DNA from: Tunturiibacter empetritectus
Lineage (GTDB): Bacteria; Acidobacteriota; Terriglobia; Terriglobales; Acidobacteriaceae
Reading direction: 5' to 3'
Assembly: GCF_013410875.1 (NCBI RefSeq)
Contig: NZ_JACCCU010000002.1
Coordinates: 1 to 64,000 of the forward strand
DNA: 64,000 nt
Below the pieces are notes generated by a model. That model worked only from the letters and a program-made list of their open reading frames with translations, had not been told where the DNA came from and searched no databases. Shown piece after piece: positions 2,318-42,720 of the stretch. Position numbers and translations under genes: made by a program. Position 1 is the first letter of the stretch. Each line of letters begins with the position of its first letter.

Positions 2318-2629
2318 TTATCCACCACCGAGAGGCGGCGTTGCACCGTCCCTCGTCTTTGACACAAAACCCGCGGCAGGGAGAAACCTTGCTAGTTTCT
2401 CTCTGGACCCTCTTCCAGCCTCGCTTATAACCGTCGCTCGCCTAGCTACGAATCTACTGCCTACGCCGCCGCTACCGACGGAAACCCAGGTTATGGATAC
2501 TTGTAGTGCGATGTCACTGCGATTACTAATCCGACCCGGCCTCACCCTTCGGCGTGACCACCCTAGCCGATGCGTCCGGCGTCATTATCAAAATCGGAAA
2601 CCTGTAGTTGATCGGACATGGACTTCGCT
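2318..2629. other. Gap without a recognisable gene
   Basis: 312 bases between the ParB-like remnant and the stop of the next minus-strand gene. Open frames of 75 codons (minus) and 150 codons (plus, running into the neighbouring gene) exist, but neither shows a recognisable domain, a convincing start or a ribosome-binding site. It is probably decayed DNA. Confidence 0.4.
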
Positions 2630-3157
2630 TCATGGCGTTGGAGCAACCGACCGTTTCAGCAGAAGACGACCGATCTGTTCTTTCGCACCCGCATACCGAG
2701 TGGCCATATCCCCACTGAACAGACCCTGTATACCTCCCGCACGATCGAGAATCAAGATGTAGGCGTCATCTGGCGTCGAATAATGGACCAGTTGCTTGAA
2801 AACTGCCTCAGACTCGAAAATGGGAATAACCTCGTCTCGATCCTGTCCCGCCGATCTCTCGACGCCCGATTTGGCGAGCCCGCGGAATAGTTTTGGGACG
2901 TCCTCCAAGAAGGGTAGCCGCAGCACAACTAGTTCTCCGTTATGGCTGAAGTCTGTTCTGAATCGATTTGCCCATGCCCCGGCCGGTTCTGAAGAACCAC
3001 GAGTGAAGCCGACGATTAGCACTGCTACCTTTCCTTTCAGTTCGTCCGGCAGAACGTGTGCGTGGCCGCTCACGGCAGTGCCGTGAACTTGAGGCAGTGT
3101 TTGCGCTTGCAGCATTATGCAAGAGAGGCAGAGGACCATCACAGCCGCGAATCTCAT
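2630..3157 (-). CDS. Exported thioredoxin-fold-like protein
   Basis: A 175-residue protein with a signal peptide (MRFAAVMVLCLSCIMLQAQ). The mature part begins with a beta strand KVAVLIVGFTRGSS, followed by a helix with W-A-N-R-F, then a strand LVVLRLPFLEDVP, and later AYILILDRAGGIQGLFSGD: the layout of an ATP10/thioredoxin-like fold. There is no CxxC, so it is not a disulfide reductase. The start ATG has AAAGGA eight bases upstream. It stands alone on its strand; its partner and role are unknown. Confidence 0.55.
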   Translation of the reverse strand: MRFAAVMVLCLSCIMLQAQTLPQVHGTAVSGHAHVLPDELKGKVAVLIVGFTRGSSEPAGAWANRFRTDFSHNGELVVLRLPFLEDVPKLFRGLAKSGVERSAGQDRDEVIPIFESEAVFKQLVHYSTPDDAYILILDRAGGIQGLFSGDMATRYAGAKEQIGRLLLKRSVAPTP

Positions 3158-3446
3158 CAGGGTTCCTTTCGGTACGCACTTTCGTGAAACTAGAAATTGC
3201 TACTGTGAGGGCACTTGCCAGGCCTCGGTCTCGATCAATGGTTATCGAAATGCTGTAATCGGCGCGGCCTCGGACCTGCACATTGGCGTCCCGCGACCAC
3301 GGGATCCGATGTCAGGGATGTCGATCATGGACCATTGGGCTTGAAAGCCTGACGGTCGTCTGGAATTCTAATCGAGTATTGTGAGGGAACGTGACTTCTT
3401 TGCCGCGCCGGATGATGCGTTCATAGATCGATACTGCTGCCGAATA

Positions 3447-4679
3447 TTAGCCGATCCCGGCGGCGATATTTCTTTGACCGGCTGCGGTGCCGACAATGAA
3501 TCCGATAAGCCCAAGCCCGCCGGAAGCTGCACCGTTCTTCACAAGCGCGCCTCCATCGCCGTCAAATGGTCGAGAGGCAAGCGCAGCCAAAATGATTGGT
3601 ATCACCACCTTGTTCTGGGGCTTTGGCTTTACTTCGCCTTCCGAATTCATGATCATTGCCGAGCTTTGGGAAGAATCGATTCCGTTCACGACTGCATCAA
3701 CGTTCAATGGCGTTTGGCCGTGAATTTCGAGTTGATGAAATCTAAATCGAAGAATTCCGGCCCGGCCCCAGGAGCGCGCCGGCTTTGCTTGTGAGACCGC
3801 GCCCAAAATGACTGAGCCTTGAGGAACAACCACGCTACCTTCAGAATTAAGAATCGGCTCTGCCACCCTTGCGCTTATCGCTTGACCACTTTTCGAGGTC
3901 AACGATGAAATGTCGTCGCTGAGGTAGGCACGTATAAGCCACGTTGGCTCGTGCTTTCCAGCAGTTATTTCTGTTGGTATGGGTGGACGACCCGTGACCA
4001 TTCCAGCCTCATCGGAGGATTGCGTCTGAGGTTGAGTTGGAATAATGAGGGGAGCGCTCGTCTCGACGGTCCAGGCCGTCTCGCGCTCGATGCGTTCAGG
4101 ATGCCATGGGATCTGACTGTATATGAACTGCTTGAAGCGGTCCTCCTTGTCGGGCCCTGTAAATGTTGCAATAAAACTCTTGGATACCTGCTTAAGGTCC
4201 GACAATTGTCGAGACAGGAAACTTCCGGTGCGCGGTGGATTAGGAATGACCCGGTAAATCTTGGCCCCCTTGGTCGCGGCGTAGGTCGTGACGGCAATGA
4301 TCGACCCGTCAACTGCAACAAGTTGGTCAAACCGAACCACAGGCGTGTGAAACGGGGTAAAGTCGCCGCGTAATCGAGCATGAATGCGTCGGCTGCGGTC
4401 TGCATCTAGAGCGGTAATGGTTCCGTTGAGCGGTGTGTTTTCTGGTAGTACCAGCTCGTCGTTCACATATACAGGGTACATAAGCTCGGCTCGCACCTGC
4501 TCGCCGATTCTCATCGCGGAAGGGGACACGGCCTTGATGGGTAGAGGTGTCCCGATCGGGATTGTTATCGACAGCGACTGGCAGTGAGCGCATGGCCAAA
4601 TGAAAATCCCAATTACCATTCCGAACGACAGGCGGATGCCGACGATGAGGGCAATCGTTTCAACTCTGTTGATCGGCAC
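3447..4679 (-). CDS. Exported protein with two VirB10/TrbI-like beta segments, function unknown
   Basis: A 410-residue protein starting at GTG with AAGGGA seven bases upstream and a long N-terminal hydrophobic segment ending near CAHCQS. Two similar blocks are visible: residues about 70-125 (V-L-P-E-N-T-P-L-N-G-T-I followed by a charged stretch and F-D-Q-L) and about 285-335 (V-V-P-Q-G-S-V-I-L-G-A-V followed by a charged stretch and F-H-Q-L-E). This 'P-x-G-T-x-L-x-G-x-V' pattern is seen in the C-terminal beta domain of VirB10/TrbI proteins and in acidobacterial exported proteins. The C-terminus is glycine- and alanine-rich. It starts 12 bases after the O-methyltransferase stop, so it is probably the last gene of the TetR-controlled operon. 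Confidence 0.5.
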   Translation of the reverse strand: MPINRVETIALIVGIRLSFGMVIGIFIWPCAHCQSLSITIPIGTPLPIKAVSPSAMRIGEQVRAELMYPVYVNDELVLPENTPLNGTITALDADRSRRIHARLRGDFTPFHTPVVRFDQLVAVDGSIIAVTTYAATKGAKIYRVIPNPPRTGSFLSRQLSDLKQVSKSFIATFTGPDKEDRFKQFIYSQIPWHPERIERETAWTVETSAPLIIPTQPQTQSSDEAGMVTGRPPIPTEITAGKHEPTWLIRAYLSDDISSLTSKSGQAISARVAEPILNSEGSVVVPQGSVILGAVSQAKPARSWGRAGILRFRFHQLEIHGQTPLNVDAVVNGIDSSQSSAMIMNSEGEVKPKPQNKVVIPIILAALASRPFDGDGGALVKNGAASGGLGLIGFIVGTAAGQRNIAAGIG

Positions 4680-4691
4680 TATAAATTCCCT

Positions 4692-5762
4692 TCATTTCCC
4701 GGTTGGAGCTGGCTTCCGCGCGACCTGTATTTTGCAGTCAGGCAAAAGACGAAACGACACGGGGCGTTCCGGACAAAGACCTGCCTCTTCTTGCCAGGCT
4801 CGAATGTCGCTTAGCTCCCAAAGTTGCGCTCCACTAACCGCGCCGAAATACAGATCCATCAGAGTGGTAATTTGGCCTCCCGATGCACTGGAAGGACGAC
4901 GAACCAGATCCATTGCAACTAGAATTCCGCCGGGCTTCAGTGCGCCCGCTACTCGCTGAACTAGGCAGCGGTTCGTCTTTTCATCGAAATGGTGCATGAG
5001 GTTGGCAATCAGAACCACGTCAGCCGAGCTTGGAGCGAGCACGATCGAGCGGGCGTCAGCCACTGCAAAGGTGACTCGATTCCATGCCGGGACCTTAGTG
5101 CGCTCCAAGCTACCGCTTAGCGGTATGGCAAGGTCGAGTACCCGCGCATGAAGGTGGGGATAGTGGGTACATAACGCCAGGGAATACAGGCCGTGGCCGC
5201 CCCCAATGTCCAACATTTCGGTCGCTCCAGACGGAAGGCGGAGGTTACTAACTAACTCACCCGCAATCAGTCGTGCCTGGTCAGCTTGCCCCTGATGGTA
5301 TAAATACCAGTCTTCCGGCTGCATCTCGCTGTGGAAGTCTTGGCCCCGCCCAGTGCGGACATACTGCCCAAACTCCATGAATCGCATGTCAAGCTCACGG
5401 TGCAACATCGCGTAGTGCAACGACTTATCGGCCCCTGCCAGCAGCCACCGTCGAGATGCCCGGGTCAGTCGGTAGAGTGACGGTCGTGGAGAAGGAGCGT
5501 AGCTTTCGTGCAAGTACTTACTCGCGCTCAAAGCTCGCAGGAGCCGCTCCGTTGCGTCGGGATCGGTCTCACAGCGGGAGGCGACTCCCCCTGCCGCGAG
5601 CGGCCCTTGTTCTAGGGCATCGAAAATGCCGAGCGACGAAGCGGCGATAACCGCTTTGGCCAGCATCGGCCCAATAATCACATCGCACAGCGGCGTAGGC
5701 ACCTGACCAAACATCAGAGCGACCCACTCGGCGGGATTTTCTGGAACTGTGGAGAGTCTCAT
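4692..5762 (-). CDS. SAM-dependent O-methyltransferase (COMT-like)
   Basis: A 356-residue small-molecule O-methyltransferase of the plant COMT / acetylserotonin type: an N-terminal winged-helix dimerisation domain (about residues 20-100), then the SAM-binding motif MLDIGGGHGLYSLALC, then LANLMHHFDE, the region with the usual catalytic base, and MDLVRRPSS. Such enzymes methylate hydroxyls of phenols, quinones or polyketides; the substrate here is unknown. The ATG at 5762 is preferred because AGGA lies about six bases upstream; an upstream TTG at 5795 would overlap the preceding gene by 8 bases. It is the third gene of a tightly packed minus-strand operon. Confidence 0.85.
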   Translation of the reverse strand: MRLSTVPENPAEWVALMFGQVPTPLCDVIIGPMLAKAVIAASSLGIFDALEQGPLAAGGVASRCETDPDATERLLRALSASKYLHESYAPSPRPSLYRLTRASRRWLLAGADKSLHYAMLHRELDMRFMEFGQYVRTGRGQDFHSEMQPEDWYLYHQGQADQARLIAGELVSNLRLPSGATEMLDIGGGHGLYSLALCTHYPHLHARVLDLAIPLSGSLERTKVPAWNRVTFAVADARSIVLAPSSADVVLIANLMHHFDEKTNRCLVQRVAGALKPGGILVAMDLVRRPSSASGGQITTLMDLYFGAVSGAQLWELSDIRAWQEEAGLCPERPVSFRLLPDCKIQVARKPAPTGK

Positions 5763-5787
5763 CGGTATCCTGCCTGCGTTGAGTTGG

Positions 5788-6420
5788 TTAGCCAATGAAG
5801 ACGGCTTTACGGACGTACTCGTTCTTTCGCAACTCCGAGGTGATGAAATGCGCCACCGTCGCGCAAGGCACGGACATCGTTCCGGGGATGATGCCCTCGG
5901 TGGAAAGACGGTAATCCGCGAATGTCTGGGAATTGGTAAGACGAGAAGGTCGGACGATCGTCCAGTCCAGCTGTGTACCGGTGACGAGCTTCTCTACTGC
6001 CCTGTGTTCCTTGCGAATGTTTCGGAAAAGCGTGGCAAGAAGAATGCGGAAGATCGTTGCAGGTATGACCCCCAGTGGCAAAACGCGCGTGTCCACCATC
6101 CCCGCTGACATTCCGATATAGCGGCGAATGGAGGTCTTCTGAATCGTGCGTAAAATTACACTAGTCGTCTCGGATTCGATCGAGTTCCTCCGGAGCGTTC
6201 CGGCACCGATCGCGTTCACTACCGCATCTTGGCCCTCAAGCGCCGCTGCCACTGCGCCAGTGTTCATCGCATCGCCTACCGCGACCCTAACGCCGACGGG
6301 TGCCCGGTATGAAGACAGATTGCGGACGGACGCCGTAACCGAAAAGCCTTCTCGCAACAGGGCCGCCACGATTGCTCTTCCCAGCTTTCCGCCCGCACCA
6401 AAGACGAGGACGTTGTTCAT
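5788..6420 (-). CDS. NmrA-type NAD(P)-binding protein
   Basis: A 210-residue atypical short-chain dehydrogenase: it begins MNNVLVFGAGGKLGRAI, the Rossmann G-x-G-G-x-x-G dinucleotide-binding loop, followed by VGDAMNTGAV, DAVVNAIGAG and, near the C-terminus, LDWTIVRPSRL, all typical of the NmrA/SDR_a5 group. These proteins act as NAD(P)H-dependent reductases or redox sensors. The ATG at 6420 overlaps the TGA of the upstream gene as ATGA, showing translational coupling; a longer frame to 6495 is therefore rejected. Its end overlaps or abuts the O-methyltransferase. Confidence 0.85.
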   Translation of the reverse strand: MNNVLVFGAGGKLGRAIVAALLREGFSVTASVRNLSSYRAPVGVRVAVGDAMNTGAVAAALEGQDAVVNAIGAGTLRRNSIESETTSVILRTIQKTSIRRYIGMSAGMVDTRVLPLGVIPATIFRILLATLFRNIRKEHRAVEKLVTGTQLDWTIVRPSRLTNSQTFADYRLSTEGIIPGTMSVPCATVAHFITSELRKNEYVRKAVFIG

Positions 6421-6893
6421 CGTGTGTTCCCCCATTGAAAGAACACGTAGCCTGCTACAGCCAATATGCATCGAATCGTATCGGCACGATTCCACCGATC
6501 AATGATTTTTGCGGCATCCACTGGCGGATTGTCGGACCACGCCAATATTTGAAGATTGATCGGTCGATGTACAGCCAGAGTCATTATGAACACAGATAAG
6601 GAAAGAAGGGATGCGGCCCAGTCGCAAATGCGGTTGGCCGGACCGCCGTAAAATAGCGTGAGCCCGGACAATACTATGGAGAGGATCATCAGCAGAGGCA
6701 TCGCCTTACTAATACGATGGATAAGGAGAGGGCGTAATCTCAGCTGCAAATCCAATGGGAGTTTACCCACAGCGGGCCGCAACCCTAAGGTCCCAAATAC
6801 GAAGGACCCAGCAAGCAAACCGTACACCACTGCGGCAGCGCAGGAGAGGAAGGGGTGCGGCGGGATTGGACTAGTTGCACCGTTAATGAGCAT
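6417..6893 (-). CDS. DUF1772 (anthrone-oxygenase-like) membrane protein
   Basis: A 158-residue protein with four hydrophobic segments (starting near residues 16, 65, 90 and 140) and the DUF1772 hallmarks P-I-N-x-x-I-x-x-W (in HRPINLQILAW) and a terminal W-N-R-A-D-T-I-R. The family includes fungal anthrone oxygenases; bacterial members are mostly uncharacterised. The start is placed at ATG 6893 because a promoter (TTGACA at 6924-6929, CATTAT at 6901-6906) would initiate at about 6894, excluding the longer frame that begins upstream at TTG 6962. This makes the mRNA nearly leaderless, which fits the absence of a ribosome-binding site. It is the first gene of the operon. Confidence 0.75.
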   Translation of the reverse strand: MLINGATSPIPPHPFLSCAAAVVYGLLAGSFVFGTLGLRPAVGKLPLDLQLRLRPLLIHRISKAMPLLMILSIVLSGLTLFYGGPANRICDWAASLLSLSVFIMTLAVHRPINLQILAWSDNPPVDAAKIIDRWNRADTIRCILAVAGYVFFQWGNTR

Positions 6894-6929
6894 TCGCTCA
6901 ATAATGCCGCAGAGCAGTTGGCTTGTCAA
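6883..6929 (-). promoter_or_regulatory. Promoter and TetR-type operator of the DUF1772 operon
   Basis: On the minus strand: TTGACA (6929-6924), a 17-base spacer, CATTAT (6906-6901), and a 22-base palindrome at 6883-6904 with arms TTA-x-TGAGC and GCTCA-x-TAA. The palindrome covers the -10 box, the predicted start point and the start codon, so a bound repressor would block initiation. A second, nearly identical palindrome with the same promoter layout is at 7758-7804. Binding by the TetR protein encoded between them is inferred. Confidence 0.7.
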
Positions 6930-7003
6930 GATGCCAGTAAGGAACGAGTGTTTGCCCCTCAACGTGGAGCGGTATAGTTGTCAGTGTAGAAAATGCTCCA
7001 ATA

Positions 7004-7627
7004 GTGCGAGTTCGCTCGCAAGGACACGAATTGAGACCTCAATCGATTACAAAGGAAATGATCGTTGACGCCGCTTTGTCGGTGATCCACGCGAAGGGCG
7101 TTGCAGGGGCTACGACCCGTGCGATCGTCAAGGCAGTGCCGTGTTCCGAGGGAAGCCTCTATGTTCACTTCACAGACCGGACCCAGTTGCTAGTCGCCGT
7201 CATCCGCAAGGTAGTGGGTGGTTTCTCAAAATCTCTGTCTCTCTTGGACGGTCAAGAGGGGAAGGGACATGATCCTTATGAGAGGCTTGTAGCGCTGATG
7301 CTCGAAGGATTGCAGTTTTACCGCGCTGCGCTGCCCGTTTTGGCCGGCGTAATTTCTGACCCGCAAGTCCTTCTAGCGCAACAAGAAGCCTTTTCTGCTT
7401 TAGATCGTGGGCCGAAGACCTCACGAGGAACGATTGCGGCGTTTATCAGCAAGGAAATCAAGCAACACAGACTTTCTGCGTCCATCAATCCAGATAGCGC
7501 AGCAGCGATGATGCTCTATGTTCCGTTGGGAAGAGCATTCGAAGAGCGATTTACCGGGAGACGCCCGGTTGGCAGCGACGTTAGTTTCTGCAAGCAATCT
7601 GTCGCTACCATTTTGCAAATCGGCTGA
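7004..7627 (+). CDS. TetR/AcrR-family transcriptional repressor
   Basis: A 207-residue regulator. The N-terminal HTH is clear: IVDAALSVIHAKGVAGATTRAI, then GSLYVHFTDRTQLL, the recognition helix and its following helix. The C-terminal ligand-binding domain (residues 70-207) is variable and gives no ligand. It lies divergent to the DUF1772 operon and between two matching palindromic operators (6883-6904 and 7782-7804), so it most likely represses both and perhaps itself. The start is GTG at 7004 with no strong ribosome-binding site; an additional perfect 6-bp inverted repeat (TGCGAG/CTCGCA) covers the start codon. Confidence 0.85.
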   Translation: MRVRSQGHELRPQSITKEMIVDAALSVIHAKGVAGATTRAIVKAVPCSEGSLYVHFTDRTQLLVAVIRKVVGGFSKSLSLLDGQEGKGHDPYERLVALMLEGLQFYRAALPVLAGVISDPQVLLAQQEAFSALDRGPKTSRGTIAAFISKEIKQHRLSASINPDSAAAMMLYVPLGRAFEERFTGRRPVGSDVSFCKQSVATILQIG

Positions 7628-7757
7628 GATGGATCTCCTTGACGCGGGAAACGCCGTTTGCGCAGGAGAAGCTCGCCGCTTGTCCAAGGTTCGCCTTGGA
7701 CAGCAAATTGCCACCCCCTCCTTCGACACTGGACGCCATAGGTCGATCAGCGATGCA

Positions 7758-7804
7758 TTGACAAACTAAGCCGATTGAGAGTTAATGAGCGTGTGCTCAA
7801 TTAA
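7758..7804 (+). promoter_or_regulatory. Second promoter with the same TetR-type operator
   Basis: TTGACA (7758-7763), a 17-base spacer, GTTAAT (7781-7786), and a palindrome at 7782-7804 with arms TTAATGAGC and GCTCAATTA. Over 22 aligned positions it matches the 6883-6904 operator at 18. Position relative to the -10 box differs by a single base. It points right, toward the exported protein starting at 7994, leaving an untranslated leader of roughly 200 bases with no gene that I recognise. Confidence 0.65.
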
Positions 7805-7993
7805 GGCTTTGGCTGCCAAATTGCGCCCGCTGTCCGCATGCCCAGTGGAACTTTACTGAGTAGTGCAATCGCCGAAAAGGCATTTCTCTGACGATTGCCA
7901 TAGGGAGTGCAGAGATTGTTGATGTTTCTCGCCAAATGTCGTTGGACACCTGCAGTGCCCGAACAATCACAGCAAAACATGAGGAATATAGAA

Positions 7994-8548
7994 ATGCCCA
8001 AACTGAATCGGTTCGCGAAGTCATTACTTCTCACGATAACGGCGCTCGGTGCAGTGCCATCCGCGTTTTGCCAACTTATCATTCCGGCCGATCGGAGACT
8101 CCCGCCGCCGGTCGGGTTCTCCTTCGACGGCACATGGGCTTGCGGATCGGGAGATTCAGTTGCCAATCTTAGGATTGGAAGTCAAGACCGCAGCCGAAGT
8201 GCCCATTTGACTTCACGATACTGGACGGGACTGCAGGAATCGCAGGAGTGGTTTCACGGGAGCTATCTCGTGGGGTACGACCGCGACCGGAGGAGCTTCA
8301 TTTTGATCGATCTAAGGGACCCCGCCGCAATGGTATACAAAACTGACGGATGGCAAGGCAACGAATTGTCTTTGACCCAAGCAAGCGACGGAGGTGACCT
8401 TGTTTCCACTTACCGCGTCCTCTTCCAGATCAAAGATCGTCAACATTTCGACGTGACATGGGAGGAATCTGAAGCGGGCGTGTGGCACAAAGATCCACCG
8501 ACAGGGTGCCGGAAATTGGGGCAGAGAATGAGATCGCCACACAATTAG
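7994..8548 (+). CDS. Exported protein of unknown function
   Basis: A 184-residue protein with a signal peptide (MPKLNRFAKSLLLTITALGAVPSAFCQ). The mature part begins F-D-G-T-W-A-C-G-S-G and continues with alternating polar/hydrophobic strands, suggesting a small beta-barrel or lipocalin-like fold; two cysteines (in WACGSG and TGCRKLG) could form a disulfide. ATG 7994 is chosen because GAGG lies about nine bases upstream and the signal peptide starts there. The operator-bearing promoter at 7758-7804 is the nearest upstream signal. I do not recognise the family. Confidence 0.65.
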   Translation: MPKLNRFAKSLLLTITALGAVPSAFCQLIIPADRRLPPPVGFSFDGTWACGSGDSVANLRIGSQDRSRSAHLTSRYWTGLQESQEWFHGSYLVGYDRDRRSFILIDLRDPAAMVYKTDGWQGNELSLTQASDGGDLVSTYRVLFQIKDRQHFDVTWEESEAGVWHKDPPTGCRKLGQRMRSPHN

Positions 8549-8673
8549 GGGCTCGTGCGAGACGCGTCACAAGTCACAACTACGAGCTCAATTGAAGCGG
8601 AGAGTTTCCGCGCGGGCGGCTTCCTATCAGCAGAAGCAACGTTGCCAACTCAAGCAACCGGACATTGAAAAGC

Positions 8674-9090
8674 ATGGATGATTTGAAGGACGAAGCGGCT
8701 CGGAAGCCAAACAGGATGCAGAGAGATCCTAATCAAAGAGTTGGTGCGCAGAACGTCGACTCGGGATACAACCGGCGCGCAAGCCTTTCGATCGATGTGC
8801 TGTTCCAAAGCAAGTGGAGAGTGCAAATTCTCTGTGCTATGCGCCCCGGACCCGTCCGCTTGGGCCAGCTCGCACGACTTATCCCGGGGGCCTCAAAGAA
8901 GATGCTCACTCAAAATCTTAGGAAACTGGAGGTTGACGGGATCATTGTCCGCGAGGACTTGAGTGAAATTGTGCTTCATATCGAATACGGTTTGAAGGAC
9001 GAAGTAAGAGATTCCGTCTGCGCACTGCTGGATCACCTTGCAGAGTGGGGCGGAAGTTATCTTAGCCAGTCGAGAACCGACAAGGAATAG
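8674..9090 (+). CDS. HxlR-family winged-helix regulator
   Basis: A 138-residue protein with a central HxlR domain: IDVLFQSKWRVQILCAMRPGPVRLGQLARLIPGASKKMLTQNLRKLEVDGIIVRED is the usual 'K-W-x-x-x-I-L' helix, the HTH, and the wing. The family's usual first cysteine before the HTH is absent (SLSIDVL). The N-terminal 40 residues are a polar extension. ATG 8674 is chosen over TTG 8665, though neither has a clear ribosome-binding site. No partner enzyme is adjacent: the nearest upstream gene is the exported protein at 7994 and downstream is a 400-base gap. Confidence 0.8.
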   Translation: MDDLKDEAARKPNRMQRDPNQRVGAQNVDSGYNRRASLSIDVLFQSKWRVQILCAMRPGPVRLGQLARLIPGASKKMLTQNLRKLEVDGIIVREDLSEIVLHIEYGLKDEVRDSVCALLDHLAEWGGSYLSQSRTDKE

Positions 9091-41772: not shown

Positions 41773-42720
41773 TCAGCCTTCAAGTGCTCCCATAGAAATT
41801 GTCGTCTGTAGAACTTCAAGTGACTCGTCGCCAGCGGCTTCGCGAATCATAGCAGGAAGAGCCGAAGGCTTGGCATCTTCGGTAATGATCAGAACAGACG
41901 GACCGGCGCCGCTGAGAGCAACGCCCAGAATCCTGGGGCTCGCGATCTTTGGACTGAGTGTCGCCGAACTGTCCGCCAGGGGCAGCAGCAGTGGGAGCAG
42001 CGGGCAAACCTTCATGCGGTACGGCTGGTGGATACGATCCTGCATAGCAATTCGGAGAAGATCGCCCCGCCCCTGGGCAAAGGCAGCCACCAGCAGGGCG
42101 GTTGACTGAATATTGGCAACTACGTCCTCCCGGGGATAGGTAGCAGGAAGCAGCGCGCGCGCCTTTTCCGTGGCAAGGCTGGCGGGGGGCATCGCTAAGT
42201 TCAATCCCCAGATTAGATTTTCTCCGCAAGTAGATGTTGATAATGAGTTTTTACTCATCAAAGAAGCCGTCATCCCGCCGAGATAGCACGCCGCCACATT
42301 ATCGGGATGACCTTCCCGAATACAGGCCTCTTCGAGTATCTGTTGGCCCGTCCAGCCCAGGTTGCCGAAGTGATTCGCCAGAAAGACGCCGGCCAGGAGT
42401 GCCGAGGCGCTCGAGCCGCAACCCATCCCAAGAGGAATCTCATTATTGATCAGGAGGTGGAGCCGTGGAGCCAGAACTCCGGCGACCGCCAGAACGTCGA
42501 CGTAGGTCGTCAGGATGAGATTGTCTTCGAGCCTGGCACATAAGTCAGCGTCGCGACCAGTAGCCTCGATGTAAAAGCCGTCGGCGACCCAGGCGTCGAT
42601 AGTGAGATAAAGCGCCATCGCCAGGCCGAGCGCGTCAAACCCGGGACCCAGATTCGCCGAGGTAGCAGGCAGACGCAGATGGTACGGCTTGCCTCGGTCC
42701 GTTGTGGTGCTTTGACTCAT
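41773..42720 (-). CDS. thrB: Homoserine kinase
   Basis: A 315-residue GHMP kinase: LPATSANLGPGFDALGLAMALYL at the start (homoserine-binding and P-S/T-A-N motif), IPLGMGCGSSASALLAGVFLANHF (the G-L-G-S-S-A ATP loop, here with Cys), and GVALSGAGPSVLIIT at the end. It phosphorylates L-homoserine to O-phosphohomoserine. Its ATG overlaps the stop of thrC by four bases (ATGA), so threonine synthase is translated first and homoserine kinase is coupled. Confidence 0.95.
   Translation of the reverse strand: MSQSTTTDRGKPYHLRLPATSANLGPGFDALGLAMALYLTIDAWVADGFYIEATGRDADLCARLEDNLILTTYVDVLAVAGVLAPRLHLLINNEIPLGMGCGSSASALLAGVFLANHFGNLGWTGQQILEEACIREGHPDNVAACYLGGMTASLMSKNSLSTSTCGENLIWGLNLAMPPASLATEKARALLPATYPREDVVANIQSTALLVAAFAQGRGDLLRIAMQDRIHQPYRMKVCPLLPLLLPLADSSATLSPKIASPRILGVALSGAGPSVLIITEDAKPSALPAMIREAAGDESLEVLQTTISMGALEG

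What the first reader, a model, noticed from the sequence alone, without database searches (positions are those of the whole stretch)
6883..7804. Two promoters with the same TetR-operator architecture flank a TetR gene
The palindromes at 6883-6904 and 7782-7804 match at 18 of 22 positions, and each overlaps the -10 box of a promoter with TTGACA and a 17-base spacer, facing away from the TetR gene. Two independent copies with the same spacing are unlikely by chance. This predicts a defined regulon: leftward DUF1772, NmrA, O-methyltransferase and an exported protein; rightward an exported protein at 7994.
Basis: partly seen in the sequence, partly recalled or inferred. Interest (0 to 1): 0.72.

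Follow-up and report, generated by a model that had tools for sequence, protein, structure and literature searches.

The report
TetR repressor with two matching operators
A soil bacterium (Granulicella) carries a TetR-type gene switch whose two near-identical DNA landing sites sit on the start signals of the genes to its left and right; relatives of the switch in other bacteria have the same kind of landing site beside them, so the prediction is solid, but it is an ordinary kind of bacterial gene control.

Summary
Palindromes at 6883-6904 and 7782-7803 match at 18 of 22 positions. Their core TGAGC-N4-GCTCA occurs at only four places in the 5.07 Mb genome, two of them here. Each has an exact TTGACA (15 copies in 64 kb, both strands) at nearly the same distance, 28 and 29 bases from hexamer start to core start.

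The decisive evidence is new. Seven TetR homologues in other genomes of the family (about 33% identity, near-identical recognition helix) each have TGAG-N6-CTCA, with the same spacing, in the gap to a divergent gene. Similar sites flank Streptomyces and Priestia relatives. A matrix built only from outside sites ranks the two window sites 1st and 3rd.

Corrections: the operators are 1 bp out of register with the promoters; the right -10 is weak; the left operator probably holds the start codon of the DUF1772 gene (ATG 6893); tetR's own promoter may carry a degenerate third site (7005-7020). The rightward gene is frameshifted in a sister strain.

Most likely a TetR repressor of a DUF1772-NmrA-O-methyltransferase operon and a rightward exported-protein gene. 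No binding or expression data exist. New member of a known kind, modest interest.

The parts
6883..6904 (.). left operator TTAATGAGCATTCGCTCAATAA (core 6887-6900, TGAG-N6-CTCA)
   Evidence: ranked 1st in the window by a matrix built only from outside homologues
6901..6929 (-). leftward promoter: TTGACA 6929-6924, 17-base spacer, CATTAT 6906-6901; predicted start of transcription about 6894
   Evidence: 10 of 12 matches; sequence; start site inferred from spacing
7782..7803 (.). right operator TTAATGAGCGTGTGCTCAATTA (core 7786-7799)
   Evidence: ranked 3rd in the window by the outside matrix
7758..7786 (+). rightward promoter: TTGACA 7758-7763, 17-base spacer, GTTAAT 7781-7786 (weak -10); predicted start about 7793
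   Evidence: sequence; not listed by the standard scan because A is missing at position 2 of the -10
7031..7627 (+). tetR gene, best start TTG 7031 with AAGGA at 7020-7024 (the mechanical ORF starts at GTG 7004)
   Evidence: Pfam TetR_N, 41.0 bits against cut-off 24; start chosen from the ribosome-binding site and alignment
6978..7005 (+). probable tetR promoter TTGTCA, 16-base spacer, AATAGT
   Evidence: 9 of 12 matches
7005..7020 (.). possible degenerate third operator TGCGAGTTCGCTCGCA at the tetR promoter
   Evidence: matrix ranks 4th or 5th in the window but 0.5-1.2 such scores are expected per 64 kb; suggestive only
6417..6893 (-). DUF1772 / anthrone-oxygenase-like membrane protein, probable start ATG 6893 inside the left operator
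   Evidence: Pfam Anthrone_oxy 39.7 bits, cut-off 27.3; N-terminus from homologues
5788..6420 (-). NmrA-like NAD(P)H-binding protein, ATGA overlap with the DUF1772 gene
   Evidence: Pfam NAD_binding_10 118 bits, NmrA 40.7 bits
4692..5762 (-). O-methyltransferase (dimerisation domain plus Methyltransf_2)
   Evidence: Pfam 61.5 and 52 bits
3447..4679 (-). predicted exported protein, last gene close behind the O-methyltransferase
   Evidence: spacing of 12 bp; no Pfam match
7994..8548 (+). predicted exported protein, candidate rightward target
   Evidence: 28-46% identical homologues in 7 other genomes of 200 searched in the family; frameshifted in L013

Best explanation
The TetR protein encoded at 7031-7627 binds as a dimer (or pair of dimers) to two operators, TTAATGAGC-N4-GCTCAATWA, at 6883-6904 and 7782-7803. 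Each operator covers the -10 region and start of transcription of a promoter pointing away from tetR, so bound TetR blocks RNA polymerase at both. The left promoter drives DUF1772, NmrA-like reductase, O-methyltransferase and an exported protein; the right one drives the exported protein at 7994. A small ligand, plausibly an aromatic or quinone-like substrate of the leftward enzymes, would release TetR. Shown: the sites, their rarity, the promoter geometry, and conservation of site and spacing beside homologues. Inferred: binding, repression, the leaderless left mRNA, and the ligand.
For: Site pair present at 0.06 expected; only 4 core sites in the genome, 2 here. Exact TTGACA at 28 and 29 bases from the core. 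All 7 family homologues of this TetR have TGAG-N6-CTCA in the gap to a divergent gene, with the recognition region TTRAIxxAVPCSEGxxYxHF nearly identical although overall identity is about 30%. Similar sites stand beside Streptomyces (one) and Priestia (three) relatives. A matrix from outside sites ranks the window sites 1st and 3rd of 64,000 positions with p of about 5e-7 or less each. In the Granulicella aggregans copy both cores are intact. DUF1772 and tetR start codons are about 137 bp apart, within the 200 bp under which divergent TetR regulators were found to repress their neighbour (PMC3511530).
Against: No binding or expression data. The right -10 box is poor and its leader is about 200 nt. 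The rightward gene is frameshifted in the sister strain. The homologues have one operator, not a second one on the far side of tetR. Promoter geometry relative to the operator was not established in the homologues. A comparably scoring site lies inside a homoserine kinase gene at 42239, so a matrix hit alone is not proof.
Confidence: 0.82

Rival explanations
1. Only the left operator matters in the cell: TetR represses the divergent DUF1772 operon, and the right operator is a duplicate that binds TetR but no longer controls a useful gene, or only aids binding by looping over the 0.9 kb between the sites.
For: In all 7 homologues only the divergent-side operator exists; the rightward gene is frameshifted in L013; the right -10 is weak.
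Against: The right operator core is intact in both strains and keeps an exact TTGACA at the matching distance; the rightward protein has an intact frame in the window and 40-46% identical homologues.
Confidence: 0.25
2. The sites belong to another regulator, not the adjacent TetR; the match to TetR is coincidence.
For: No direct binding data; the genome holds other TetR-type genes (about 20 candidates in the first look).
Against: The same spaced site stands beside the same TetR subfamily in three genera of the family and in other phyla; a TetR with a different recognition helix (S. meliloti, L098) has a different palindrome.
Confidence: 0.07
3. TetR also represses its own promoter through a degenerate third site at 7005-7020, giving three promoters with the same operator-on-the-minus-10 design (27, 28 and 29 bases from -35 start to core). 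This is an addition to the best explanation rather than an exclusive rival.
For: Third site found by the outside matrix; promoter TTGTCA/AATAGT at the right place; a perfect 6+6 inverted repeat.
Against: Score is near chance for 64 kb (0.5-1.2 expected); the symmetric repeat has a spacing 2 bp shorter than the true operators; it could be an RNA hairpin instead.
Confidence: 0.35

Closest known systems
Divergent TetR-family regulators obeying the 200-bp rule (Ahn et al. 2012, PMC3511530)
   Same: tetR and its main target are divergent with start codons about 137 bp apart, a palindromic operator lies at the divergent promoter, and the targets are a membrane protein and enzymes.
   Different: There is a second full operator beyond the 3' end of tetR on a promoter facing the other way.
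TetR homologues beside DUF6640 membrane protein genes in the same bacterial family (L063-L069)
   Same: Same recognition helix, same TGAG-N6-CTCA operator in the divergent gap.
   Different: About 30% identity overall; outer operator bases differ (GTGAGT against ATGAGC or TTGAGC); the target is DUF6640, not DUF1772; only one operator.
TetR with NAD(P)H-binding protein gene on a Priestia megaterium plasmid (L095) and a divergent NmrA-like frame in Streptomyces (L093)
   Same: Divergent tetR with an NAD(P)H-binding protein gene, GTGAGT...ACTCAC operators.
   Different: Three tandem operators in Priestia; no DUF1772 or O-methyltransferase found next to them.

Membership tests
TetR family of transcriptional regulators | N-terminal TetR_N helix-turn-helix domain | tested here: met
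   Pfam PF00440 41.0 bits, cut-off 24
TetR family of transcriptional regulators | all-helical C-terminal ligand-binding domain | not tested
   no structure predicted; the C-terminal half aligns with homologues but no Pfam C-terminal family matched
TetR family of transcriptional regulators | palindromic operator next to the gene | tested here: met
   (by sequence and conservation)
TetR family of transcriptional regulators | binding to the operator and release by a ligand | not testable with these tools
   needs mobility shift and ligand screen
TetR subgroup with recognition region TTRAIxxAVPCSEG and TGAG-N6-CTCA operator (defined here) | recognition helix and operator spacing shared with L063-L069 | tested here: met
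DUF1772 / anthrone oxygenase (PF08592) | score above the Pfam cut-off | tested here: met
   39.7 bits against 27.3
DUF1772 / anthrone oxygenase (PF08592) | oxygenase activity | not testable with these tools
   no assay; membership by sequence does not show the reaction

The most novel reading that the evidence does not exclude
One TetR controls three promoters of one design in under 1 kb (leftward operon, rightward gene and its own), each with the operator laid over the -10 box and start site; on the left the operator also contains the start codon of a nearly leaderless message, so the same bases serve as promoter edge, operator and start codon.
Probability: 0.3. Interest if true: 0.35.

Novelty: new member of a known kind. 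Interest (0 to 1): 0.27.

Why it matters
It gives an operator for a TetR subgroup, with its recognition helix, that can be followed from Acidobacteriota to Actinomycetota and Bacillota, and names a testable target operon (DUF1772, NmrA-like, O-methyltransferase). That is useful for predicting regulation in a poorly studied phylum and as a lead to the ligand, but it follows the standard TetR pattern.

Tried and rejected
DNA search of plasmids found nothing, and tblastn of DUF1772 in plasmids found nothing. Pattern search in 299 family genomes gave scattered 2-mismatch hits in about one genome in 10, near the level of the reversed-pattern control, so the exact window motif is not shared. No close TetR relative turned up in 396 phylum genomes; the only near-identical copy is that of G. 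aggregans M8UP14. The site at 42239 lies inside a homoserine kinase gene and was set aside as chance. Neighbourhoods of exported-protein homologues (L107-L109) have no operator and no tetR of this kind. Literature searches for this operator or this gene set found no description.

Full report
Observation. Both palindromes are present as described, apart from an end coordinate (7803, not 7804). They match each other at 18 of 22 positions, and dinucleotide shuffles give 0.06 matches at this stringency. In the whole 5.07 Mb genome the core TGAGC-N4-GCTCA occurs at four places, two of them flanking this tetR; allowing up to 3 mismatches to the full motif adds only two outside places, each with 2 mismatches, at least one of them inside a reading frame. 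TTGACA occurs 15 times on both strands of the window and stands 29 bases (left) and 28 bases (right) before the operator core. By simple multiplication the pair of exact -35 boxes has a chance of about 5e-7.

Corrections to the description. The -10 hexamers obtained with 17-base spacers are CATTAT and GTTAAT. They are one base out of register with respect to the operators, and the right one lacks the A at position 2, so the standard scan does not list it. The left operator lies inside the longest DUF1772 reading frame (6417-6962). Two distant homologues (L070, L071) begin at a position equal to about residue 36 of that frame, and the three substitutions against L013 before and within the operator all change amino acids of the long frame (inferred). 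The start is therefore probably ATG 6893, inside the operator, one base after the predicted start of transcription (6894). The message would be leaderless or nearly so. This is inference.

What binds there. TetR (TetR_N) has a 99% identical copy in Granulicella aggregans M8UP14 (L013), where 2552-8921 is 98% identical. That copy changes one outer base of the left operator and one spacer base of the right one, and keeps both cores. At 2% divergence this is weak evidence.

The strong evidence comes from seven TetR homologues of 31-34% identity in the same family. Each is divergent from a small membrane protein gene (DUF6640 by Pfam for the two tested) and each has TGAG-N6-CTCA, the same half-sites and spacing, 79-123 bp upstream of where the homology starts. 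Only one of these loci, L063, has further TGAG-N6-CTCA copies, and they are several kb away. Three of the seven are close to one another, so the independent number is about five.

The recognition region is TTRAIVKAVPCSEGSLYVHF here and TTRAIAEAVPCSEGAIYVHF there, while overall identity is about 30%. Further out, a Streptomyces relative has GGGTGAGTGTTCACTCACC and a Priestia plasmid relative has three tandem copies of the type GGTGAGTACACACTCACC; a Pseudonocardia relative has GGTGAGTGAGCACTCATT. A S. meliloti TetR with a different recognition helix has an unrelated palindrome.

Independent test. A weight matrix built only from the outside operators was run over the window. The two sites rank 1st and 3rd, with p of about 5e-7 or less per position in simulated sequence. 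The 2nd hit, 42239-42262, lies inside a homoserine kinase gene and is taken as chance. The next hit falls at the tetR promoter (7000-7023; a perfect 6+6 inverted repeat at 7005-7020). It has TTGTCA 27 bases before the core, but its score is expected 0.5-1.2 times per 64 kb by chance. Autoregulation is therefore only suggested.

Target genes. Leftward: DUF1772/Anthrone_oxy, then an NmrA-like NAD(P)H-binding protein overlapping by ATGA, an O-methyltransferase and a predicted exported protein, spaced as one operon. The start codons of DUF1772 and tetR are about 137 bp apart. Divergent TetR regulators closer than 200 bp repressed their neighbours in the tested Streptomyces cases (PMC3511530). Rightward: a predicted exported protein (7994-8548) with homologues of 28-46% identity in 7 other genomes of 200 searched, not next to a tetR of this kind or an operator in the three neighbourhoods examined. 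In L013 its frame is shifted after about residue 123. The rightward target is the less secure one.

Mechanism. Most likely TetR sits on both operators and excludes RNA polymerase from two outward promoters, until a ligand related to the substrate of the leftward enzymes releases it. The enzyme types (an anthrone-oxygenase-like protein, a reductase, an O-methyltransferase) suggest an aromatic or quinone-like compound; that is inference from family names only.

Novelty. This is a standard TetR arrangement with an extra outward operator. No paper found in the searches describes this operator or gene set. It is a new member of a known kind.

Noticed in passing
L013:9914-10809: In G. aggregans M8UP14 the HxlR-type regulator gene matching window 8665-9090 is interrupted by an insertion of about 0.9 kb that looks like an IS5-type transposase element (two overlapping frames).
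   Followed up: partly
window:1-15600: A same-species genome (G150) has no long DNA match to the first 15.6 kb of the window, so this end of contig C2, tetR locus included, is strain-variable.
   Followed up: partly
window:7681-7702: Perfect 9-bp inverted repeat with a TTCG loop (TGTCCAAGG-TTCG-CCTTGGACA) just after tetR, perhaps an RNA hairpin ending the tetR transcript; it has no T run.
   Followed up: no
L095:2720-2870: Three tandem GTGAGT-type palindromes lie between a Priestia plasmid tetR and divergent NTF2-like and NAD(P)H-binding protein genes.
   Followed up: no
L063-L069: A conserved pair of a TetR gene and a divergent DUF6640 small membrane protein gene with a strict operator in several genera of the family; no function is known for DUF6640.
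   Followed up: partly
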